From contig JAOBWH010000078.1 of NCBI GenBank assembly GCA_025463265.1, forward strand, positions 1 to 41,521: DNA of 41,521 nt, written 5' to 3'. The first letter of the stretch is position 1. Every line of letters begins with the position of its first letter. This document shows, piece after piece, positions 7,310-36,962 of this stretch. Origin of the DNA: Ilumatobacteraceae bacterium. Its GTDB lineage: Bacteria > Actinomycetota > Acidimicrobiia > Acidimicrobiales > Iamiaceae. Both the position numbers and the translations under genes were made by a program. The notes under the pieces were generated by a model. That model saw nothing but the letters and a program-made list of their open reading frames with translations. It did not search any database and was not told the DNA's origin.

Positions 7310-8740
7310 CTAGAAGCGGGCGTTGTAGGTGGAGCCGGTGCGCAGGAACTTCACGAGGTCGGTGACGCCCGTGGTGCCGGCGCCGTTGATCCAGTCGGTC
7401 CAGCGCTTGTACTCGGCCGCCGACGGGGCCTGCTTGATCATGGCGGCGTGGACCTGGATGACCTTCACCTGGGCGTTGGTCTTGCGCTGGTACTCGGATG
7501 ACTCGCACAGCTGACGCATCACCCAGCCGCGCTTGGAGCCGCCGTCGAGGCGGCGCTTCCAGTAGTCGAGGCCGGCTGCGTCGGGGGTCCGGCCGAACAG
7601 GTTGCGGTAGAGCTGGGTGACGTACTCGGTGTTGTCCAGGTCGCCGTAGCGACGGGTGAACTCCGAGCCGGCGGCGAACTGGCTGGCGGCGGCGTCGAGC
7701 GACGTGCCGGCGCGCGCCTTGCGGATCCAGTAGTCGAGCCCGGAGTAGTCCGGGATCCGCAGGAAAAAGCCGAGGTAGAGGCGGGCGGCGGGCGCCGAGA
7801 CCTTGGTGGCGCCGTCGTAGTTGAGCATGTCGGCGGTGAACCGGTCCGGCGTGATGGTCCCGCCCTCGAGGTTCTCGGTGGCACGGGCCACGAACGCAGC
7901 GGACGGCACGATGCCGAGGAAGTCGGCGACCTGCTGCTTGGCGAACGTGGGCGCGTCGGGCAGGGGGGCGAAGGCGCTGTTGGGCACCTTGGCTCGGACC
8001 TTGGCCGGCTCGGCGGCCTCCAGCGAGTACTTCGCGTTGACGGCGGCCGCGTTGTACCACTTCGCGTTCGGCATCCGGATCTCGAAGTGGCAGTGGGCGC
8101 CGGTGGCCTCGGCGTTGCCGCTGTCGCCGAGGAAGGCGATGTGCTCGCCCTTGAGGACCCGCTTGCCGGTGGCCATCCCGGGGGCGAAGGCGTACTTGAA
8201 CTGGTTGGCGCCGTTGTCGGTGCCGGGATCGTCGTTGTTGATGTGGAGGTAGCAGTAGTACCAGCCGTCGTCGCCCTTGAGGTAGAGCGAGTTGCCCGAG
8301 GACTGGTGGCGCAGCTCGATGATGGTGCCGTCGGTGACGGCGAGGAGCTTGAGCATCTTGTTGCCCATGAGGTCCTGGCCCTCGTGGCGCCGCCCGCCGC
8401 TGCGGGGTGCGAGGTAGGTGTCGCTCCAGCTGGCCTTGCCGAGGGTGGCGTCGGGGAGCACCGGGAACATCATCGGCCGCACGTACTTCTCGTCGGCGGG
8501 CCGGGGCGGGAGGAAGCCGTAGTCCTCGCTGGCCTCCGGGGGGACCGTGTCGGTGCCCTCGAGGCTGTCGCCCTGGGCGCTCGGGTCGCTGCCGGCACCG
8601 CCGAAGGAGGCGCCGTCCTGCGCACCGGCGACGCGGGGGATGAACGGGGCGAGCCCCGCGGCGAGGCCGCCGGCGACGACCATGCGCCGGCTGAGGCCGG
8701 ATGGGCGGGGCTCGGGATCGGGGTGGCAGGAGCACGACAT
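7310..8740 (-). CDS. Secreted M23 peptidase with C-terminal DUF4214 repeats
   Basis: This 476-residue protein starts at ATG 8740. Residues 1-41 form a Tat-like signal (SRRMVVAGGLAAGLAPF, ending VAGAQD). Residues about 85-225 are an M23 LytM-type zinc peptidase domain: HEGQDLMG supplies the H-x3-D metal ligands and GAHCHFEIR the HxH motif, so the catalytic set looks intact. Residues about 285-476 contain two or three DUF4214 repeats (YLGFFLRIPDYSGLDYWIRK; LYRNLFGRTPDAAGLDYWKR; a weaker third around YKRWTDWI). M23 enzymes cut peptidoglycan cross-links, and DUF4214 occurs on cell-surface or extracellular proteins. A wall-remodelling enzyme tethered by DUF4214 is the inference. A 34-base gap to the phosphatase gene suggests co-transcription. 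Confidence 0.88.
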   Translation of the reverse strand: MSCSCHPDPEPRPSGLSRRMVVAGGLAAGLAPFIPRVAGAQDGASFGGAGSDPSAQGDSLEGTDTVPPEASEDYGFLPPRPADEKYVRPMMFPVLPDATLGKASWSDTYLAPRSGGRRHEGQDLMGNKMLKLLAVTDGTIIELRHQSSGNSLYLKGDDGWYYCYLHINNDDPGTDNGANQFKYAFAPGMATGKRVLKGEHIAFLGDSGNAEATGAHCHFEIRMPNAKWYNAAAVNAKYSLEAAEPAKVRAKVPNSAFAPLPDAPTFAKQQVADFLGIVPSAAFVARATENLEGGTITPDRFTADMLNYDGATKVSAPAARLYLGFFLRIPDYSGLDYWIRKARAGTSLDAAASQFAAGSEFTRRYGDLDNTEYVTQLYRNLFGRTPDAAGLDYWKRRLDGGSKRGWVMRQLCESSEYQRKTNAQVKVIQVHAAMIKQAPSAAEYKRWTDWINGAGTTGVTDLVKFLRTGSTYNARF

Positions 8741-30082: not shown

Positions 30083-30155
30083 GGGGCCGTAGCTCAGTTG
30101 GCAGAGCGCTGCCTTTGCAAGGCAGATGTCGTCGGTTCGATTCCGATCGGCTCCA
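30083..30155 (+). tRNA. tRNA-Ala (TGC anticodon), probable island integration site
   Basis: The acceptor stem GGGGCCG pairs with CGGCTCC (one G-T), the D-arm is AGCTCAGTTGGCAGAGC, the anticodon stem CTGCC/GGCAG holds TTTGCAA with anticodon TGC, and the T-arm is TCGGTTCGATTCCGA. The discriminator is A30155; CCA is not encoded. Unfamiliar, less GC-rich sequence and an integrase gene begin directly after it, so its 3' end is a likely attB/attL. Confidence 0.96.
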
Positions 30156-30182
30156 CTCGAATCCCGCCCTGGTCAGGGTCCC

Positions 30183-30365: not shown

Positions 30366-31979
30366 GTGGGTAAGAAATCGCTCTACAAGGGTGATGGGCG
30401 GGTCAAGACCTACACACTTCCTGTCAGCGGATCGGTAGTGCTCTACGGCCCCGAGATCGACGTGGTCCAGACGGCCGAGTTTCAGCGGCTCGCCGGACTC
30501 AAGCAGCTTGGCACGAGCTATGTGGTGTTCCGAGGCGCACTGCACACGCGCTTCGAGCACAGCCTCGGGGCGCTGCACCAGGCCGAGCGCATGATGCAGG
30601 CCATCGAGCGCAACCCCAAGAACGGCGCGCCGATCGACCGAGCGGCCAGACGCCTGGCGCGCCTTGGTGCCCTCCTCCATGACCTCCCCCACGTTCCGTT
30701 CGGTCACACCCTGGAGGATGAGTTCAAGCTCCTCCAGCGCCACGATGTGAACAAGGCCCGCATCAAGACCTTGTTGGTCAAGAGCGACATCGGAGGCATC
30801 CTTCGGAGTGCCCTCCCTGACGGGGAGTTCGAGCAGCTTGTCGCTGTCCTTGATGCCAAGAAGGACGAGGAGTTCGCGGAGCTTGAATACCCGTTCGTTG
30901 GCGACATCGTGGGCAACACGGTTTGTGCCGACCTTCTCGACTACGTCCCGCGGGACCTGACGGCTTGCGGACTTCCGGTCGCCCTTGGCGATCGCTTCCT
31001 TGACTACCTGACCATCAGCGACGACGGGGAGTCGAAGCTGAACCGGCGGCGAATCGTGCTCAACCTGGACAAGGGTGGGATGCCTCGGCCTGATGTCGAA
31101 TCAGAGGTCGTGAAGCTTCTCTCGTATCGCTACGAGCTGGCCGAGCGGGTTTACTTCCATCACGCCAAGAACGCGGCCAGCGTCATGATCGGCCGCGCAG
31201 TGTTCGCCGCGGGTCTTGCGGTTGGTGAGGATTCGCCCAAGAAGCTCGACAGGAACTTCCACTGGCTCAGCGACGAGATGCTGCTGCAAGCTCTGGCCGT
31301 CCCAGAAGTTGCTGATGCGATGTCCCTCGTGCGGGCGAACAGCGTGACCCCCGAGGGGATCGAGCTGGCGTCGGACCTCGCACAAGGGGTCCTTGATCGG
31401 CGGATGTTCAAGATCGCGTACATCGGGGTTCACGACGACATGGCCGTCGGGGCTGAGCGTGTCGTTGAGGAGTACGGAGGCCCCGAGGCTCGGATGGAGC
31501 TTGAGGATCGGCTCGCCCGACAGGCGGGACTCGATTCCGGTGATGTCCTGGTCCACATCCCCCGTTTCCGCATGATGCGGAAGGACGCGGATGTGCGGGT
31601 TCGTGCCGCAAACCGGGAAATCCTCAAGCTCAACGAATGGGACGCGCTCCACAGCCGTCGGATCGACGCTCTCAACCAGGCCCACGAACGGCTCTGGCGG
31701 GTGACGGTCTACATCCGCCCTGAGCTTGAGGCCGCAGTCGCCATCGTGCGTGCCGCCGCCGAGGAGACCTTCCACGCACCGTCTCGATACGGGGATGCGC
31801 CCCTGCTCCGGCCGTACCTCCGTGCGGTGTTCGACCAGCACCAAGAGGCCCGCGGCTGGACCTATGAGGACCTGCGCCGCTTGGAGGCGAAGCCGTTGGC
31901 TGCGTTCTCGGAGGCATCGTCCCTCGATGCCATCGTGGACAACCTTCACGCCCATATCGGGGTGTTGCGTGAGCAGTAG
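30366..31979 (+). CDS. SAMHD1/dGTPase-like HD-domain phosphohydrolase
   Basis: The start is GTG 30366, preceded by GGGGGG eight bases upstream; the product has 537 residues. The HD metal site is complete: H60/H65 in ALHTRFEHSLGAL, H105-D106 in LLHDLPHVPFGH, and a distal D near 190-193 in VCADLLDY. The opening IDVVQTAEFQRLAGLKQLG is characteristic of the COG1078/SAMHD1-like branch of dNTP triphosphohydrolases. These enzymes hydrolyse dNTPs to deoxynucleoside and triphosphate; some bacterial relatives starve phages of nucleotides. The long C-terminal half (residues about 330-537) is helical and unassigned. It is the first gene of the tRNA-Ala island, and its stop abuts the convergent ImmA-like gene with no spacer. 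Confidence 0.85.
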   Translation: MGKKSLYKGDGRVKTYTLPVSGSVVLYGPEIDVVQTAEFQRLAGLKQLGTSYVVFRGALHTRFEHSLGALHQAERMMQAIERNPKNGAPIDRAARRLARLGALLHDLPHVPFGHTLEDEFKLLQRHDVNKARIKTLLVKSDIGGILRSALPDGEFEQLVAVLDAKKDEEFAELEYPFVGDIVGNTVCADLLDYVPRDLTACGLPVALGDRFLDYLTISDDGESKLNRRRIVLNLDKGGMPRPDVESEVVKLLSYRYELAERVYFHHAKNAASVMIGRAVFAAGLAVGEDSPKKLDRNFHWLSDEMLLQALAVPEVADAMSLVRANSVTPEGIELASDLAQGVLDRRMFKIAYIGVHDDMAVGAERVVEEYGGPEARMELEDRLARQAGLDSGDVLVHIPRFRMMRKDADVRVRAANREILKLNEWDALHSRRIDALNQAHERLWRVTVYIRPELEAAVAIVRAAAEETFHAPSRYGDAPLLRPYLRAVFDQHQEARGWTYEDLRRLEAKPLAAFSEASSLDAIVDNLHAHIGVLREQ

Positions 31980-32504
31980 TCAGCAGGCGGCAGGCATCGA
32001 GGATCGCTGACGGTTGCAGGCGCAGCCGCCGCCGCGGTGACGCCAACCGCACTCTTTGCACACAACCGTCCCGTTCTCCAGCAGGAACGGGCTTGGAACC
32101 TCCTTGGCCCGCACCAGCGCCCACGCGGCCACGCGCTCCTCGACCTTCGCCCGCTTGGTCACCTGTCGAAGACCTACGCCGGGCTCGACCGGCCCGACGA
32201 GGAGGGCGACGGCGAACTCATCAGCGAATCGCTCCTCAGACGAAGCGCCCACCCATTCCGCCAGGCCACGTCGCACCAGGACGTGCCCCAGCTCGTGAGC
32301 CAACACGAACCGGCGGCGTCGTCTACCCAACGTGGTTCGGATGACGATCTCCGAAGCGCTGACGGTCATCCCGTCTAGGGATGAAGGTAGGTCTCGCTCT
32401 CGGACGCTGACCTCCAGCTCGGCCAAGATCGCGTCGATATCGACGGGGAGCGACGACCTTCGTCGTACGCGATGGGCGAGGCGATCTGCGCCCGATGACG
32501 ACAT
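31980..32504 (-). CDS. ImmA/IrrE-family metallo-endopeptidase with C-terminal zinc ribbon
   Basis: This 174-residue protein starts at ATG 32504 with no clear ribosome binding site, possibly leaderless. The zincin motif HELGH (residues 70-74) with downstream acidic residues (EERFADEF, residues 90-97) defines the ImmA/IrrE (COG2856) family. The C-terminus carries CKECGWRHRGGGCAC, a probable zinc ribbon not usual in ImmA. In ICEBs1, ImmA cleaves the repressor ImmR to induce the element; in Deinococcus, IrrE cleaves DdrO. Here a divergently encoded HTH protein is a candidate substrate or partner. The role in controlling the island is inferred. Confidence 0.83.
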   Translation of the reverse strand: MSSSGADRLAHRVRRRSSLPVDIDAILAELEVSVRERDLPSSLDGMTVSASEIVIRTTLGRRRRRFVLAHELGHVLVRRGLAEWVGASSEERFADEFAVALLVGPVEPGVGLRQVTKRAKVEERVAAWALVRAKEVPSPFLLENGTVVCKECGWRHRGGGCACNRQRSSMPAAC

Positions 32505-32602
32505 AGTGCAAACTGTAATCACACGGGCGTGGTTTGGCACCGCCAGCTGCCAATAACAGCACACAAAGTGCACGTATCGCCCGAAGGCGCGAGGCTGGTC
32601 CG
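32505..32602. promoter_or_regulatory. Divergent control region of the ImmA-like and HTH genes
   Basis: 98 bases separate the two starts. AGTGCA occurs at 32505-32510 and 32567-32572, and GCAC-N5-GTGC forms a small inverted repeat at 32559-32571. This is a plausible operator region for a switch controlling both genes. Confidence 0.35.
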
Positions 32603-33064
32603 GTGGCTGTCAACCGGATTACGACGAAGGAGGCTGCGTCGCGTGTCGGCGTCTCACCCACGTTCCTCTACAAGCTGGTTGAGGACGGCGAGGTGCCGGG
32701 TCACATCGAGGAGTTGCCGGGCGGTGGTCGCAAGTTTCGCTTCATGGAGCAGGAGATCGACGCCTACAACGAGGATGGTGGCTATCAACGGACGCGCCAT
32801 CTCCGGCCGGACCTGGTGCGGCGCGACCCGACTCCAGCCGCTGGCGAAGGGGACGAGGTGGGTCTCCGTAGACAGCTTCAGGAGCGCACCGAGGAGTGCC
32901 TGTCCCTCCGGAGTCAGGTCGAGACAGAACGCCTTGCACGGCTCGCGGCCGACATGCGCGTCGATGAACTCCAGAGAACGCTGCAGGTCCGCAACCAGAT
33001 GATCCGGTCCGTTGTGGATGGCGACCCCTCCTGGGCGGACGTTCTTGGGCCACCCCCCGAGTAG
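32603..33064 (+). CDS. Excisionase-like HTH protein with coiled coil
   Basis: The start is GTG 32603, with GAGG eight bases upstream; the product has 153 residues. Residues about 3-55 are an HTH_17/MerR-type winged helix (ITTKEAASRVGVSPTFLYKL, then GRKFRFMEQEIDAY), as in recombination directionality factors. Residues about 80-135 form a coiled coil (LRRQLQERTEECLSLRSQVE; DELQRTLQVRNQMI). The C-terminus ends SWADVLGPPPE. It could be an excisionase or a transcriptional regulator; the divergent ImmA-like protease favours regulation. A second excisionase-like gene lies beside the integrase, so the two proteins may have separate jobs. Confidence 0.72.
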   Translation: MAVNRITTKEAASRVGVSPTFLYKLVEDGEVPGHIEELPGGGRKFRFMEQEIDAYNEDGGYQRTRHLRPDLVRRDPTPAAGEGDEVGLRRQLQERTEECLSLRSQVETERLARLAADMRVDELQRTLQVRNQMIRSVVDGDPSWADVLGPPPE

Positions 33065-33207: not shown

Positions 33208-34422
33208 TCAGACGGCGCGGAGGTTGGCTCGGGCCTCCTTGGCGGCGGTCTTCGCCGCGGCCAGCTTGGCCTCGGCGATTACCTTGCTGAACCCGGTGGC
33301 GACGATCTCGTCGCTCTGGGCGTGCTGATAGATCAGTGCCGCTCTCGGTGAGGCGTGGCCCATCCTCTTCATGAGGGTGCGGATGTCGACCCCGATGGCC
33401 ACGGCGAGGGTCGCGTGGGTGTGGCGCAGGTCATGGAAGCGGAGACCGGTGAGGTTGGCCTTCTCCACCGCGGGCAGCCAGGCTCGGCGGTAGAAGTTCG
33501 ACCTCCGGATGTAGCCCCCCTGGGGGGCGGTAAAGACGAGGCCGTTCTTGCCGGGCTCGGCGAACTTCTTCATGTGGTCCTTCAACGCGGCCATGACCTC
33601 AGGGGGCATCGTCACCGTGCGGACACCGGCCTCGGTCTTCGGTGGCCCGCAGACAAGGGTCTTGCTGTCCGGCTGGGTGACCTGCTCGACCACCCGGATG
33701 GTGGCCTTGTTGAAGTCGATGCGGTGCCGTCGGAGAGCGCAAAGCTCACCCAGCCGTAGCCCCCCGTAGGCAGCGACCAGCACCATCGCCCTGTAGCGCT
33801 CGGGCATGGCCTCGCTGATCTGGATGACCTCCTCGGCCGTGGCAACTCGTTGCTCTGGCGACCTCTCCGACGCCACCCCGTGAAGGCGGCACGGGTTTCG
33901 AGCGATGATCTCATCGTCCACCGCCACCTCCATGATGGAGCGCAAGATCCGGTAGGCCTTGGCGACCGTGTTGCGCGAGATCGGCTGCTTCGGCTTGGAC
34001 TCCGCCGCTGCTTCCGGTGTGCCTTCCTTCTTCGGGTATCGCGGCAGGGCCGACACCCACCCATGCCAGGCCCTGATGGTCTCGGAGGTGATCTGGTCGG
34101 CCTGCGTGCCCGTGAAGTAGGGGAGGATGTAGCGGCTGAGGTACGAGCCGTAGGTGGCTGCCGTGGTCGGCCTCAGGTTGGGCCGGGAGTCGGACCAGGC
34201 GAGGGCCAGGTCCTCGAACAGCGTCTTCGCCTTTTGAGGGTCGAGCCAGGTCCCGCGGTCGAGATCGGTCTGCATCGAGGCCAGGTAGCGGTTGGCCTGG
34301 GCCTCCGTCCTGAAGGTGTGTGGGGCGGAGTGCATGCGCCCGGAACGATCGCGGTAGCGCGCCTGAAATCGGCCGCTGGGCAGTGTCCGGACCGAACCGA
34401 AGGTTCGGCGCTCTTGGGTCAT
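33208..34422 (-). CDS. int: Tyrosine recombinase / integrase
   Basis: This 404-residue protein starts at ATG 34422, with AGAGG five bases upstream. The N-terminal AP2-like arm-binding and SAM-like core-binding domains (residues about 1-170: SGRFQARYRDRSGR; WSDSRPNLRPTTAATYGSYL) are followed by the catalytic domain. It has the first Arg in YGGLRLGELCAL, the HxxR box in HDLRHTHATLAV, GHAS, and the nucleophile Tyr in AALIYQHA, so it appears active. Actinobacterial integrases of this type commonly use tRNA 3' ends as attB. Its 3' end faces tRNA-Ala 3 kb away, with HD, ImmA and HTH genes in between. The preceding gene is excisionase-like. Confidence 0.93.
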   Translation of the reverse strand: MTQERRTFGSVRTLPSGRFQARYRDRSGRMHSAPHTFRTEAQANRYLASMQTDLDRGTWLDPQKAKTLFEDLALAWSDSRPNLRPTTAATYGSYLSRYILPYFTGTQADQITSETIRAWHGWVSALPRYPKKEGTPEAAAESKPKQPISRNTVAKAYRILRSIMEVAVDDEIIARNPCRLHGVASERSPEQRVATAEEVIQISEAMPERYRAMVLVAAYGGLRLGELCALRRHRIDFNKATIRVVEQVTQPDSKTLVCGPPKTEAGVRTVTMPPEVMAALKDHMKKFAEPGKNGLVFTAPQGGYIRRSNFYRRAWLPAVEKANLTGLRFHDLRHTHATLAVAIGVDIRTLMKRMGHASPRAALIYQHAQSDEIVATGFSKVIAEAKLAAAKTAAKEARANLRAV

Positions 34423-34442: not shown

Positions 34443-34904
34443 TCAGCCAGTTGTATCGCGCGGGCCTGACAGTGAAGCCCTGAGAATCGCCGATCGGATG
34501 GGGTCGGTGGCTGGGGTCGGGGGCTGAACCTCACGGGCGGGAGGCGCATCCTTGGATGGCTTCGTTGGCCGCTGGATCACGCGGGTGGTCACGGCGTCGA
34601 GGTCCGCTCGGGTGAACCTGTTGAACCGGCCGGTCTTCGTGACTACCACTCGTCCCTCCTCTACCAAGCGGCGGATGAACCTTGGGGCAACATTGAGGTA
34701 ATCCGCAGCTTGATCTGTGGTCAGGTAGCGCTCGGTCCTGCTCAGGGCCGGGACAAGCCGTAGGGGCGAGGGCTCAACCCCGCGGGCGTAGCTGCGGGTG
34801 CAGTCCTCCTCGGTGAGCCACTCCTCCCCACACCAACCACACGAGCTCCTCCTGGGTGATCCGGTGAGTTGTGAGAGACCCACAGCCTCACCCGGAGGGC
34901 TCAC
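34443..34904 (-). CDS. Excisionase-like HTH protein with N-terminal zinc knuckle
   Basis: The start is uncertain: GTG 34904 gives 153 residues, and TTG 34943 would give 166. The N-terminal part contains CGWCGEEWLTEEDC, a possible zinc knuckle. Residues about 58-105 form an HTH_17 domain (YLTTDQAADYLNVAPRFIRR; TKTGRFNRFTRADLDAV) typical of excisionases. The Pro-rich C-terminus ends 20 bases before the integrase start, the usual xis-int order. It probably bends att-site DNA to favour excision and may also repress int. Confidence 0.78.
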   Translation of the reverse strand: MSPPGEAVGLSQLTGSPRRSSCGWCGEEWLTEEDCTRSYARGVEPSPLRLVPALSRTERYLTTDQAADYLNVAPRFIRRLVEEGRVVVTKTGRFNRFTRADLDAVTTRVIQRPTKPSKDAPPAREVQPPTPATDPIRSAILRASLSGPRDTTG

Positions 34905-34961
34905 CTCACCGGTGGACCACCCACGCCACCCCGCCAGGGACAATGTCCCCGCTCATCACAG

Positions 34962-36962
34962 CTAGGTCGTCGACGGATCGGTCACCTCTGCATCGAAACC
35001 CAGTTGGTCGGCGAGCCGCTTGTGCAGCTCGACCAACGCCTTCTGTCCGAGAGCATTCAGCACATGTGTCGGCGGAAAGGTCTGAGTTGCGGCCGAGACG
35101 ATGTTTTGCGCCACGCGAATCTTGCTCGGCGGGTCAACGTCTCGCGCCTTGCACCAGGCTTTGACCACCGCCGCTCGTCCAGCTTCGCTGAGGTCGGAGA
35201 CTTGCGGCAGATCATCAGCCAGATAGGGCCGCAGCTCGATCTGAACAGCTTCGACGTAGACCTCAGCGGTCACGAGGTCTTCAAGCGTCACGCCCCCCGA
35301 AGCCAGGTGAGCAAGTGAGTGGATTCGCTCGCCATCGATCCCTGCGTCCTCTAGTGCGACCGCCAGAGCGAGGCCAGGGGGGTCACCGTCGACGATGTAT
35401 GCGACGCGCCCTCCCTCCTTATCGAGGTCACCGAGGCTGTCTGTCGAGGCATTGCTGATCCCAGGAGCGACTCGATAAACGAGCGGACCGGACCCTGTGG
35501 CCTCGCGAATAAGCGTGGGATAGAGGATCGCGTCTGATGCGCCTTCGGTGATGAGAATCTCGCGCGGGACCGCGAAGGGGAGCGCCGATGCACCCATCCC
35601 GAAGAGAAGCGGAGCGTGGCCGGGGCCGGAGGTCCAAAAGGCATTGTTGATGACGCTTCGATGCTCACCTGATGGCTCGACTGCGCGCACCCCCGTGCCG
35701 AGGTCCGGTGGGAGCGCGCCGGGAGAGTGCGTGGTGTAGATCACTTGCTTCGCGAGCCGCTGATTTTCGAGGATCTCGATGAGGTTCGCCTGCGCTCCGA
35801 GATGCAGGTGGGTCTCGATCTCGTCGATGAGCAGGATCGTGTCCCTCGCACCCTCCCGTTCGAGGAACGCTCGCAGCGCCAGGAACCACCGGAGGCCATC
35901 GCTGCGGTCCGAAACCGACAGGTAGCCGAGTTCCTTGCCGGCTTGCACCAACACCGACATCACCGTTCCATCAAGAGCGAGCCGGGGGGCGGCGAGGGAT
36001 TGATCCCACGATTCGCTGAAGACTTGGTCTAGGCGCTCGTTGGCCACCTCAATGAGCTGTTCGACGTAGCCTCGGTCGCCTTCGATCGCGCCGATCAGCG
36101 TGGGGAGACTGAGGCCGGCCATCTGGGCCAAGTTCGCCAGCGGGGCGGGGAACTGACCGTCCTCGAACTCTGCAAGGTCGTACCGGTCTTGGATGTCGCG
36201 CTCCTCCTGGCTGAACAGAGCGAACCTTGGCAGGCGCTGCCCGAGCACCTCTTCCACCATGGAGCGCGGATGTTCCTTGGACTCAGCGGTCGCAGCTTGA
36301 TCGAGCGCCTGAGCCGCTTGGGACCTGGCTGCACTCGACGCCTCCCATGCGGCTGCGACCACGGCATCGGCTTCGTCGTCTTCACCAGCAGCGAGAGGCG
36401 GAGCTTCGATGCTTTCGAGCATGAGGCCAGCTTCGGTGATGGTGGCGATCGCGTTGTCAGGGAGCGTCTCGTCATCGGAAGCGAGGATCTCGCGCGCTGC
36501 CTCCCAGGTCTCGGCCGACCACGCGAGTTCGCCCGTCGAGTAGGCAGCATCGAGATACTCGTCACCTGTGAGATCCTCGACCGCCTCCAACGCAACGCGA
36601 CGCGGAGCGAGGTCTCGTGCTGGCTCTGGCTCAAACGTCCAGTGCTCGGAACGCCGACGGCTCTTCTCCACCCAACAGCGCTCAACCGTGTTGATCATGG
36701 GAACGTGGGCCAGAGCCTCGGTGTCACTCTGTTCCAACTGGAACAGCGCCTTCGTCGCTGGGACTGCACTCGCAGGCCGAGTCCTCGTGCCCAGTTCGGG
36801 AGGTAGAGGCTCCCCAGACCCGGTGAGGGACAGCGCTAACAGCAGCGTGCTCTTTCCAGCTTCGTTGGGTCCCACGATCGCAACGAGCTGATCGGCGACC
36901 AGAAGGGAACTTTGCTCGGCGAAACGCTTCACACCGACGAGCTTGAACTTCAACAGCCGCAT
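34962..36962 (-). CDS. OLD-family ATP-dependent nuclease (AAA ATPase plus TOPRIM-like domain)
   Basis: This 666-residue protein starts at ATG 36962, with GGAAGGA eight bases upstream. The N-terminal ABC/SMC-type ATPase begins MRLLKFKLVGVKRFAE with Walker A GPNEAGKST (residues 31-39), a helical insert (about 150-300), a signature-like SDGLRWFLAL, Walker B ILLIDEIETHLHLG and the TTHSP switch. The C-terminal third has TOPRIM-like motifs: ILITEGASDAILYPTL (Glu) and VAYIVDGDPPG (DxD). This order defines OLD-type nucleases, which include GajA of Gabija and P2 OLD. The nuclease residues seem present but the TOPRIM is divergent. No UvrD-like gajB follows. It sits 102 bases after the HEPN-like gene and directly before xis-int, all on one strand. 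Confidence 0.85.
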   Translation of the reverse strand: MRLLKFKLVGVKRFAEQSSLLVADQLVAIVGPNEAGKSTLLLALSLTGSGEPLPPELGTRTRPASAVPATKALFQLEQSDTEALAHVPMINTVERCWVEKSRRRSEHWTFEPEPARDLAPRRVALEAVEDLTGDEYLDAAYSTGELAWSAETWEAAREILASDDETLPDNAIATITEAGLMLESIEAPPLAAGEDDEADAVVAAAWEASSAARSQAAQALDQAATAESKEHPRSMVEEVLGQRLPRFALFSQEERDIQDRYDLAEFEDGQFPAPLANLAQMAGLSLPTLIGAIEGDRGYVEQLIEVANERLDQVFSESWDQSLAAPRLALDGTVMSVLVQAGKELGYLSVSDRSDGLRWFLALRAFLEREGARDTILLIDEIETHLHLGAQANLIEILENQRLAKQVIYTTHSPGALPPDLGTGVRAVEPSGEHRSVINNAFWTSGPGHAPLLFGMGASALPFAVPREILITEGASDAILYPTLIREATGSGPLVYRVAPGISNASTDSLGDLDKEGGRVAYIVDGDPPGLALAVALEDAGIDGERIHSLAHLASGGVTLEDLVTAEVYVEAVQIELRPYLADDLPQVSDLSEAGRAAVVKAWCKARDVDPPSKIRVAQNIVSAATQTFPPTHVLNALGQKALVELHKRLADQLGFDAEVTDPSTT

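What the first reader, a model, noticed from the sequence alone, without database searches (positions are those of the whole stretch)
30366..33064. HD dNTPase, zinc protease and HTH genes packed between tRNA-Ala and the integrase
The integrase is 3 kb from its presumed attachment site, and that space holds a SAMHD1/dGTPase-like protein, an ImmA-like protease with an extra zinc ribbon and a divergent HTH coiled-coil protein. dNTP depletion is an established anti-phage strategy, and ImmA proteases trigger responses by cutting regulators. A protease-controlled nucleotide-depletion module is possible; ordinary control of the mobile element is the simpler reading.
Basis: partly seen in the sequence, partly recalled or inferred. 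Interest (0 to 1): 0.65.

Follow-up and report, generated by a model that had tools for sequence, protein, structure and literature searches.

The report
Protease-paired SAMHD1-like nucleotide-destroying gene pair
Beside a mobile element's integration site sits an enzyme that probably destroys DNA building blocks next to a small zinc protease, and the same two genes sit side by side in many unrelated bacteria and one phage, which suggests an unnamed protease-controlled defence system.

Summary
Between tRNA-Ala (30083-30156) and a tyrosine integrase (33208-34422) lie a SAMHD1-like HD protein, an ImmA/PprI-type M78 protease with a CxxC-x8-CxC tail, and a helix-turn-helix (HTH) gene divergent from the protease. 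The element is real: 43 bp of the tRNA recur exactly on another contig, and a relative has the uninterrupted site.

HD and M78 genes are adjacent in 19 of 22 related loci, from eight phyla and a viral contig, in three gene orders. No M78 gene lay within 1 kb in any of 84 distinct control HD loci. Catalytic residues are intact in 19 of 19 pairs, and HD and M78 divergence correlate (r 0.69). Five pairs lie near restriction-modification, SIR2 or CBASS genes. The HTH partner was seen only in an actinobacterial subset and is not one family.

Best reading: a two-gene dNTP-depletion immune module controlled by its protease. Whether the protease activates or restrains the dNTPase, and whether it cuts HD or an HTH repressor, is untested. 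I found no description in the held papers searched or in PADLOC-DB 2023. No activity has been shown.

The parts
30083..30156 (+). tRNA-Ala (TGC), integration target
   Evidence: ARAGORN; Rfam
30114..30156 (+). attL core: 43 bp exact direct repeat of G000:C181:889-931 (attR)
   Evidence: aligned
30366..31979 (+). SAMHD1-like HD protein, probable dNTP triphosphohydrolase (537 aa); H60, H105-D106, H109, H114, E117, D189
   Evidence: Pfam; PDB sequence search; AF2 + Foldseek; residues
30678..30683 (+). HD motif (H105-D106)
   Evidence: invariant columns
31980..32573 (-). M78 (ImmA/IrrE/PprI-type) zinc metalloprotease, tail-to-tail with HD
   Evidence: Pfam; capP model 4e-14; AF2 + Foldseek to PprI
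32283..32297 (-). HELGH zinc-binding active-site motif
32016..32060 (-). C-terminal CxxC-x8-CxC putative zinc ribbon
   Evidence: same motif in L037 and L031 only, of 19
32534..33064 (+). HTH_17 / excise-type DNA-binding protein with long C-terminal tail, divergent from the protease; true start probably internal
33208..34422 (-). tyrosine integrase of the element
34443..34943 (-). excisionase-like HTH next to the integrase
34962..36962 (-). neighbour: AAA_21 ATPase with Toprim-like C-terminal half (OLD-like; the Toprim part is by eye)

Best explanation
The HD and M78 genes form a two-gene immune module carried by mobile DNA. The HD protein is a SAMHD1-type dNTP triphosphohydrolase, the effector. 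The M78 protein is a CapP/PprI-like sensor protease that controls it. Infection or DNA damage (single-stranded DNA is the known trigger of PprI, and also activates CapP cleavage of CapH) would activate the protease. Cleavage would then switch the dNTPase on, either by processing the HD protein itself (its long C-terminal part is a guess at the target, for the majority layout where no HTH gene was seen) or, in actinobacteria such as this window, by removing a divergently encoded HTH repressor. The dNTPase would drain dNTPs and stop phage DNA synthesis. Shown here: gene linkage across phyla, intact active sites in both proteins, SAMHD1 and PprI folds by prediction, placement on an integrated element, defence-gene neighbours for some loci. 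Inferred: dNTPase activity, that the protease controls HD, the trigger, the cleavage target, anti-phage function.
For: 19 of 22 related HD loci have an adjacent M78 gene in three arrangements (13 downstream same strand, 4 upstream same strand, 2 convergent); stop-delimited frames overlap or lie within 105 bases, start codons not determined. 0 of 84 distinct control HD loci have one within 1 kb, 52 of them with more than 1.2 kb on both sides (a recount without four duplicated places). M78 genes are rare: 23 matches in 10 genomes, 0-5 each. HD/M78 distances co-vary: Mantel r 0.69, 0 of 10000 permutations, 18 pairs. Active sites: HD H60, H105, D106, H114, E117, D189 in 19 of 19; HExxH plus third ligand E in 19 of 19. 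HD model: 49 of 50 listed Foldseek hits are titled SAMHD1, the other 'model of Cullin4'; best E 8e-17. M78 model: best hits IrrE/PprI, 3.5e-5. PADLOC's best model for all five M78s tested is capP. Same HD/HE spacing as CloA's H117-D118, H126, E129 (passages of PMC12265719). R-M, SIR2 or CBASS neighbours in L030, L032, L067, L127, L047. One pair on a viral contig with both gpA terminase domains. ssDNA activates PprI, and CapP cleavage of CapH (passages of PMC10904395).
Against: No activity, cleavage or phage assay exists. The HTH gene is not universal and no homology among HTHs was detected (E 0.88). 14 of 19 pairs have no R-M, SIR2 or CBASS neighbour identified. L041's pair sits between class II ribonucleotide reductase (by eye) and dCTP deaminase; L082's lies upstream of pheS/pheT and L093's beside uvrA (both by eye). 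That would also suit nucleotide housekeeping. L082's HD is frame-interrupted. G303 (L033) holds only a C-terminal HD remnant, 42% identical to the window's, and no M78 anywhere. PADLOC-DB's dGTPase model hits the HDs only weakly (7e-5 to 1e-6). A larger tree did not place three M78-linked HDs (L032, L129, L081) in the main clade. Only one viral contig was found. No inverted repeat or sigma-70-type promoter was found between protease and HTH.
Confidence: 0.45

Rival explanations
1. The protease restrains the dNTPase, as in a toxin-antitoxin pair or in Clover, where the partner suppresses the dNTPase until infection: M78 holds or degrades HD, and loss of M78 (phage shut-off) frees it.
For: Closely packed, in most loci co-directional genes; PADLOC RmrA (RosmerTA antitoxin) models also match the M78s, weaker than capP; in Clover inactivating the partner NTase is toxic (passage of PMC12265719).
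Against: The protease active site is kept in 19 of 19, which a pure binding antitoxin would not need; the RmrA matches cover the peptidase part, not an N-terminal Xre HTH.
Confidence: 0.25
2. The pair keeps nucleotide pools balanced in the host or in the element (housekeeping or replication control), with no anti-phage role.
For: L041 lies between ribonucleotide reductase (by eye) and dCTP deaminase (PF06559 3.8e-75); 14 of 19 loci show no R-M, SIR2 or CBASS neighbour identified in what I scanned.
Against: Patchy and rare: 2 M78-linked HDs (of 3 matches) in 296 genomes of the class; no HD match in 10 of 12 genomes of the genus, some of them incomplete; the two that have it carry pairs whose HDs are only 35% identical; R-M, SIR2 and CBASS neighbours in five loci.
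Confidence: 0.15
3. A CapH/CapP-like three-gene switch: the protease acts only on the HTH repressor, and HD is simply the regulated payload.
For: HTH-like gene divergent from the protease in the window, L037, L031, L049, L030; capP model match; PprI-DdrO and CapP-CapH precedents.
Against: In the 13 loci with protease downstream of HD no directly adjacent HTH was noticed by reading (L047 has a LexA-like gene, by eye, about 1.2 kb further on); HTHs not detectably homologous; HD is convergent with the protease in the window, so HTH would have to act at a distant HD promoter.
Confidence: 0.1
4. Ordinary mobile-element cargo: the three genes serve excision and maintenance of this element and their proximity is accidental.
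For: They lie between tRNA and integrase here and in L031; HTH_17 is an excisionase-type domain.
Against: Pair linkage across phyla, with an integrase found in 3 of 17 pair loci by the window-integrase query and one more by eye; 0 of 84 controls.
Confidence: 0.05

Closest known systems
SAMHD1 (animal dNTP triphosphohydrolase)
   Same: Sequence profile E ~1e-30 to human and other SAMHD1; predicted fold matches along ~500 columns; catalytic residues kept
   Different: No SAM domain found; bacterial; encoded beside a zinc protease; allosteric sites not tested
Bacterial anti-phage dGTPase (Tal et al. 2022, recalled and cited in PMC12265719; PADLOC dGTPase)
   Same: HD dNTPase thought to deplete dNTPs
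   Different: Only weak match to that family's model (1.1e-5); those are single genes as recalled, here a protease partner is conserved
Clover (CloA dNTPase + CloB nucleotidyltransferase; PMC12265719, abstract, outline and passages seen)
   Same: Two-gene logic: HD dNTPase plus dedicated regulator; same HD/HE spacing
   Different: The regulator is a nucleotidyltransferase making p3diT, not a protease
CapP/CapH of CBASS and PprI(IrrE)/DdrO (PMC10904395, passages seen)
   Same: M78-type protease; best PADLOC model is capP, best folds are PprI; HTH-like gene divergent in the actinobacterial subset
   Different: No directly adjacent HTH noticed in 13 of 19 pairs, and the only CBASS cyclase seen is near L047; the window protease has a CxxC-x8-CxC tail of unknown function
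RosmerTA (RmrA with M78 domain)
   Same: M78 domain matched by RmrA models
   Different: Weaker match than capP; the match does not include an Xre HTH; whether HD resembles RmrT was not tested

Membership tests
SAMHD1-like HD dNTP triphosphohydrolase | HD domain with H...HD...D metal ligands and HE catalytic pair | tested here: met
   H60, H105, D106, H114, E117, D189 in 19 of 19; residue roles by comparison with CloA and recalled for SAMHD1
SAMHD1-like HD dNTP triphosphohydrolase | SAMHD1 fold | tested here: met
   AF2 pLDDT 88.7; 49 of 50 listed PDB matches are titled SAMHD1
SAMHD1-like HD dNTP triphosphohydrolase | dNTP hydrolysis | not testable with these tools
   needs enzymology
M78 (ImmA/IrrE) metalloprotease | HExxH plus glutamate third ligand | tested here: met
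   19 of 19; Pfam M78 over cut-off in the window
CapH/CapP switch | M78 protease beside an HTH repressor | tested here: inconclusive
   divergent HTH-like gene in 5 actinobacterial loci, two with weak domain calls; not noticed in the 13 downstream-protease loci
CapH/CapP switch | protease cleaves the HTH protein on ssDNA/DNA damage | not testable with these tools
   needs biochemistry
CBASS | CD-NTase cyclase in the same operon | tested here: not met
   none among ten window proteins scanned; L047 has a cyclase about 2.3 kb beyond its protease
Clover | nucleotidyltransferase partner gene | tested here: not met
   partner is M78, no NTase among ten window proteins scanned
PADLOC dGTPase defence family | full-length match to the family model | tested here: not met
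   1.1e-5 over 89 residues only
Integrative element at tRNA | integrase, att repeat, empty site in a relative | tested here: met
   43-bp exact repeat; G003 (L159) carries tRNA-Ala followed within about 40 bases by the far-flank DNA

The most novel reading that the evidence does not exclude
A previously unnamed, cross-phylum bacterial immune system in which a PprI/CapP-type protease senses viral or damaged DNA and directly switches on a SAMHD1-like dNTPase by proteolysis: a protease-gated counterpart of animal SAMHD1 restriction, also carried by a phage.
Probability: 0.28. Interest if true: 0.8.

Novelty: new variant of a known kind. Interest (0 to 1): 0.62.

Why it matters
How bacteria keep toxic dNTP-destroying enzymes off until infection is largely open; Clover is one answer (a nucleotide signal). 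A conserved protease partner would be a second, mechanistically different answer, and would link DNA-damage-sensing proteases to a SAMHD1-type antiviral effector. The system is small (two genes), found in eight phyla, and directly testable in laboratory strains.

Tried and rejected
Single-protein pattern scans of viral contigs with HD and protease found no relative; the protease had no plasmid match. Plasmid and phage tblastn hits to HD (26 and 10 records): the seven regions opened are other HD contexts; six have annotation, none annotated as M78, and the phage record has no annotation; the M78 profile found nothing in the four of them searched. I rejected the idea that one conserved HTH is a third component everywhere. 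I rejected HD as a plain housekeeping COG1078-like enzyme (family name recalled): M78-linked HD frames are longer (stop-delimited 544-725 aa, frame-interrupted L082 excluded; controls median 452, 10-90% range 423-515) and mostly separate in the trees. Tree caveat: support of the main clade is 90-93, and three linked rows fall outside it. Rows dropped: one search left out duplicates, ORFs under 380 aa and L082; one search left out eight distant own-phylum rows. Controls: one search printed 88 loci, but four places were held twice; one search gives 84 distinct (52 with more than 1.2 kb on both sides). Loci of that control include the G303 remnant (L033). The control's profile was built from the pair proteases, so it could miss other M78 types; L030's protease was a seed chosen by eye and, like L049's, has no Pfam match at its place. 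Defence-neighbour scans: one search used neighbours picked by eye; others (132 ORFs, 19 loci; 131 ORFs, 14 of 16 drawn control loci) list only the top 25 of 62 and 56 families; control hits shown were helicase- and kinase-type models (the naming of these as helicase and kinase is recalled). The strong mad3 match is L093's uvrA-like gene, so not counted; PD-Lambda-3_B (6e-89) was not traced to a locus; L101 has a DRT-type match (8.6e-17), not counted. I claim no formal enrichment. No inverted repeats or promoters between protease and HTH; one terminator-like site, at chance level. The HD residue check used a wrong offset and was redone.
Full report
What is there. The window is contig C43 of a 4.05-Mb draft genome. 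Its genus contains G009, whose contig has the same length (53454 bases) and the same HD and M78 scores as JAOBWM010000216.1, titled Acidimicrobiales bacterium (L048), so the window is most probably from Acidimicrobiales (Actinomycetota). HD and protease genes end tail to tail without a spare base; the HTH gene diverges from the protease. Downstream lie a tyrosine integrase, an excisionase-like gene and an AAA_21 ATPase with an apparent Toprim half.

The mobile element. The 3' half of the tRNA-Ala (30114-30156, 43 bp) recurs exactly at G000:C181:889-931, where no tRNA is found. In relative G003 the tRNA-Ala is followed within about 40 bases by DNA matching the C181 flank (C181 2511-4785); in G008 the flank (from C181 1047) lies about 4 kb downstream of the tRNA. 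So something was integrated at the tRNA in G000, and the HD gene is the first gene inside the left end. The right end is on another contig, so the element's size is unknown (at least 11.4 kb here if the contig ends inside it). In G009, of the same genus, a different HD-M78 pair (HD 35% identical) lies between the gene that flanks this tRNA and the tRNA itself (matches at C76:46817-47393 and 30798-30875; HD at C76:39813-41651), with SIR2 and type IIG restriction genes. The spot looks like an integration hotspot used twice by non-orthologous HD-M78 pairs. L031 (G314) repeats the layout tRNA - HD - M78 - HTH - integrase at a tRNA-Leu.

Linkage of HD and protease. HD relatives were sought in 61 genomes, 396 of the phylum, 296 of the class, the 84,980 species genomes of genome contigs (pattern-limited, 80 best of 148 kept) and viral contigs. 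The four seed loci were the window and three of its closest relatives; the M78 neighbours were noticed afterwards. A profile from these four proteases found M78 genes next to HD in window, L037, L031, L030, L032, L049, L101, L067, L040, L038, L041, L042, L039, L047, L081, L093, L082, and a later profile in L127 and L129: 19 distinct loci. By record titles and tree labels they come from Actinomycetota, Acidobacteriota, Zixibacteria, Planctomycetota, Myxococcota, Pseudomonadota, Ignavibacteriota and Verrucomicrobiota, plus one viral contig. Order: protease downstream on the same strand in 13, upstream on the same strand in 4, convergent in 2. Of 22 related loci the three without a called M78 are L059 (a convergent small ORF with HELIE and a sub-threshold M78 match, E 0.024), L097 (HD at a contig start) and L104 (HD at a contig end). 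G303 has only a C-terminal HD remnant and no M78. Against this, 0 of 84 distinct other HD loci had an M78 within 1 kb, 52 of them with more than 1.2 kb visible on both sides. M78 genes are scarce: 23 matches in ten genomes, and in G314 the only one is the HD neighbour. HD and M78 distances correlate (Mantel r 0.69, 0 of 10000 permutations, 18 pairs, L082 left out); shared descent as a unit explains this too. In one search the 16 linked rows fall within a 19-row clade (support 90), with three more linked rows, 16 of 19 are in a clade of support 93 and three are outside it. L067 (Hyphomicrobiales) and L127 (window's order) have close HDs (end branches 0.15 and 0.19), pointing to cross-phylum transfer or to a mis-binned contig.

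What the proteins are. HD: six catalytic positions are kept in 19 of 19 (H109 in 17 of 19), spaced as in CloA. The AF2 model (pLDDT 88.7) matches SAMHD1 along about 500 columns; 49 of 50 listed matches are titled SAMHD1, the other is a Cullin4 model. Protease: HExxH and the third ligand in 19 of 19; AF2 core confident, tail not; best solved folds are IrrE/PprI (3.5e-5); no PDB match by sequence. PADLOC's capP model is the best for the five proteases tested (window, L041, L127, L129, L037). The CxxC-x8-CxC tail is found only in the window, L037 and L031.

The HTH. A gene diverging from the protease is present in window, L037, L031, L049 and L030. Domain calls are firm for window and L031, fair for L049 (1.1e-4), weak for L037 and L030. 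The window HTH has no detectable homologue in the other loci then held and the window and L037 proteins do not match (E 0.88). So a regulator position may be conserved, not a regulator family. Other loci were read by eye only.

Context. Defence genes near pairs: L030 SIR2 and type IIG R-M; L032 cytosine methylase, REase and Vsr; L067 methylase and XhoI; L127 ThsA-like SIR2, HsdR-N, methylase and Vsr; L047 CBASS cyclase and 2TM effector. L129 sits with both gpA terminase domains. Other pairs have neutral or unclassified neighbours; L041 has a dCTP deaminase directly downstream, which is either nucleotide housekeeping or a second dNTP-draining enzyme. I claim no statistical enrichment.

Mechanism. 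The common denominator is HD + M78 with both active sites kept, so the protease most likely regulates the dNTPase. PprI is activated by ssDNA, and ssDNA also activates CapH cleavage by CapP (passages of PMC10904395), which gives a plausible infection or damage trigger. Direct action on HD fits all layouts; action through an HTH repressor fits only the actinobacterial subset. A restraining role (Clover-like) is the main rival.

Literature. Searches listed no paper that, from its title or the start of its abstract, describes an HD-M78 pair; listings were capped (for example 25 of 41, 15 of 114, 8 of 78). Passages were read in PMC12265719, PMC10904395 and PMC12255303. Subscription papers, preprints outside PMC and newer defence catalogues were not searched, so the claim of novelty is limited to these sources and PADLOC-DB 2023.

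Noticed in passing
window 34962-36962 (-): AAA_21 ATPase with an apparent Toprim half (OLD-like; best PADLOC model AriA, 1e-18) beside the integrase and excisionase: a second possible defence gene on the same element.
   Followed up: partly
L041:5896-9920: HD - M78 - two-domain dCTP deaminase in a row, with ribonucleotide reductase (by eye) upstream: two dNTP-draining enzymes around one protease, or nucleotide housekeeping.
   Followed up: partly
L033:2422-4353 (-): Protein with an HEVAH zincin-like N-terminal part (by eye) and a dCTP deaminase C-terminal domain (5e-34), a few kb from a remnant C-terminal HD fragment (7386-8078).
   Followed up: no
L059:7696-8184 (-): Small convergent ORF beside an HD clade member with HELIE in place of HExxH; possibly a degenerate M78 partner.
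   Followed up: partly
L117, L120 (plasmids): Another HD architecture (about 800 aa) preceded by a small hypothetical gene on Rhizobium and Desulfosarcina plasmids.
   Followed up: no
L118, L122 (plasmids): Recurrent operon radical SAM - 3'-5' exonuclease - AAA ATPase - HD protein on Roseibium and Sinorhizobium plasmids; another possible HD-based system.
   Followed up: no
L039:4092-4838 (-): Tyrosine-recombinase-like ORF (by eye) about 1 kb from the HD-M78 pair.
   Followed up: no
G009:C76:30798-47393: tRNA-Ala neighbourhood with HD, M78, SIR2 and type IIG R-M genes: same chromosomal spot as the window element but on the other side of the tRNA.
   Followed up: partly
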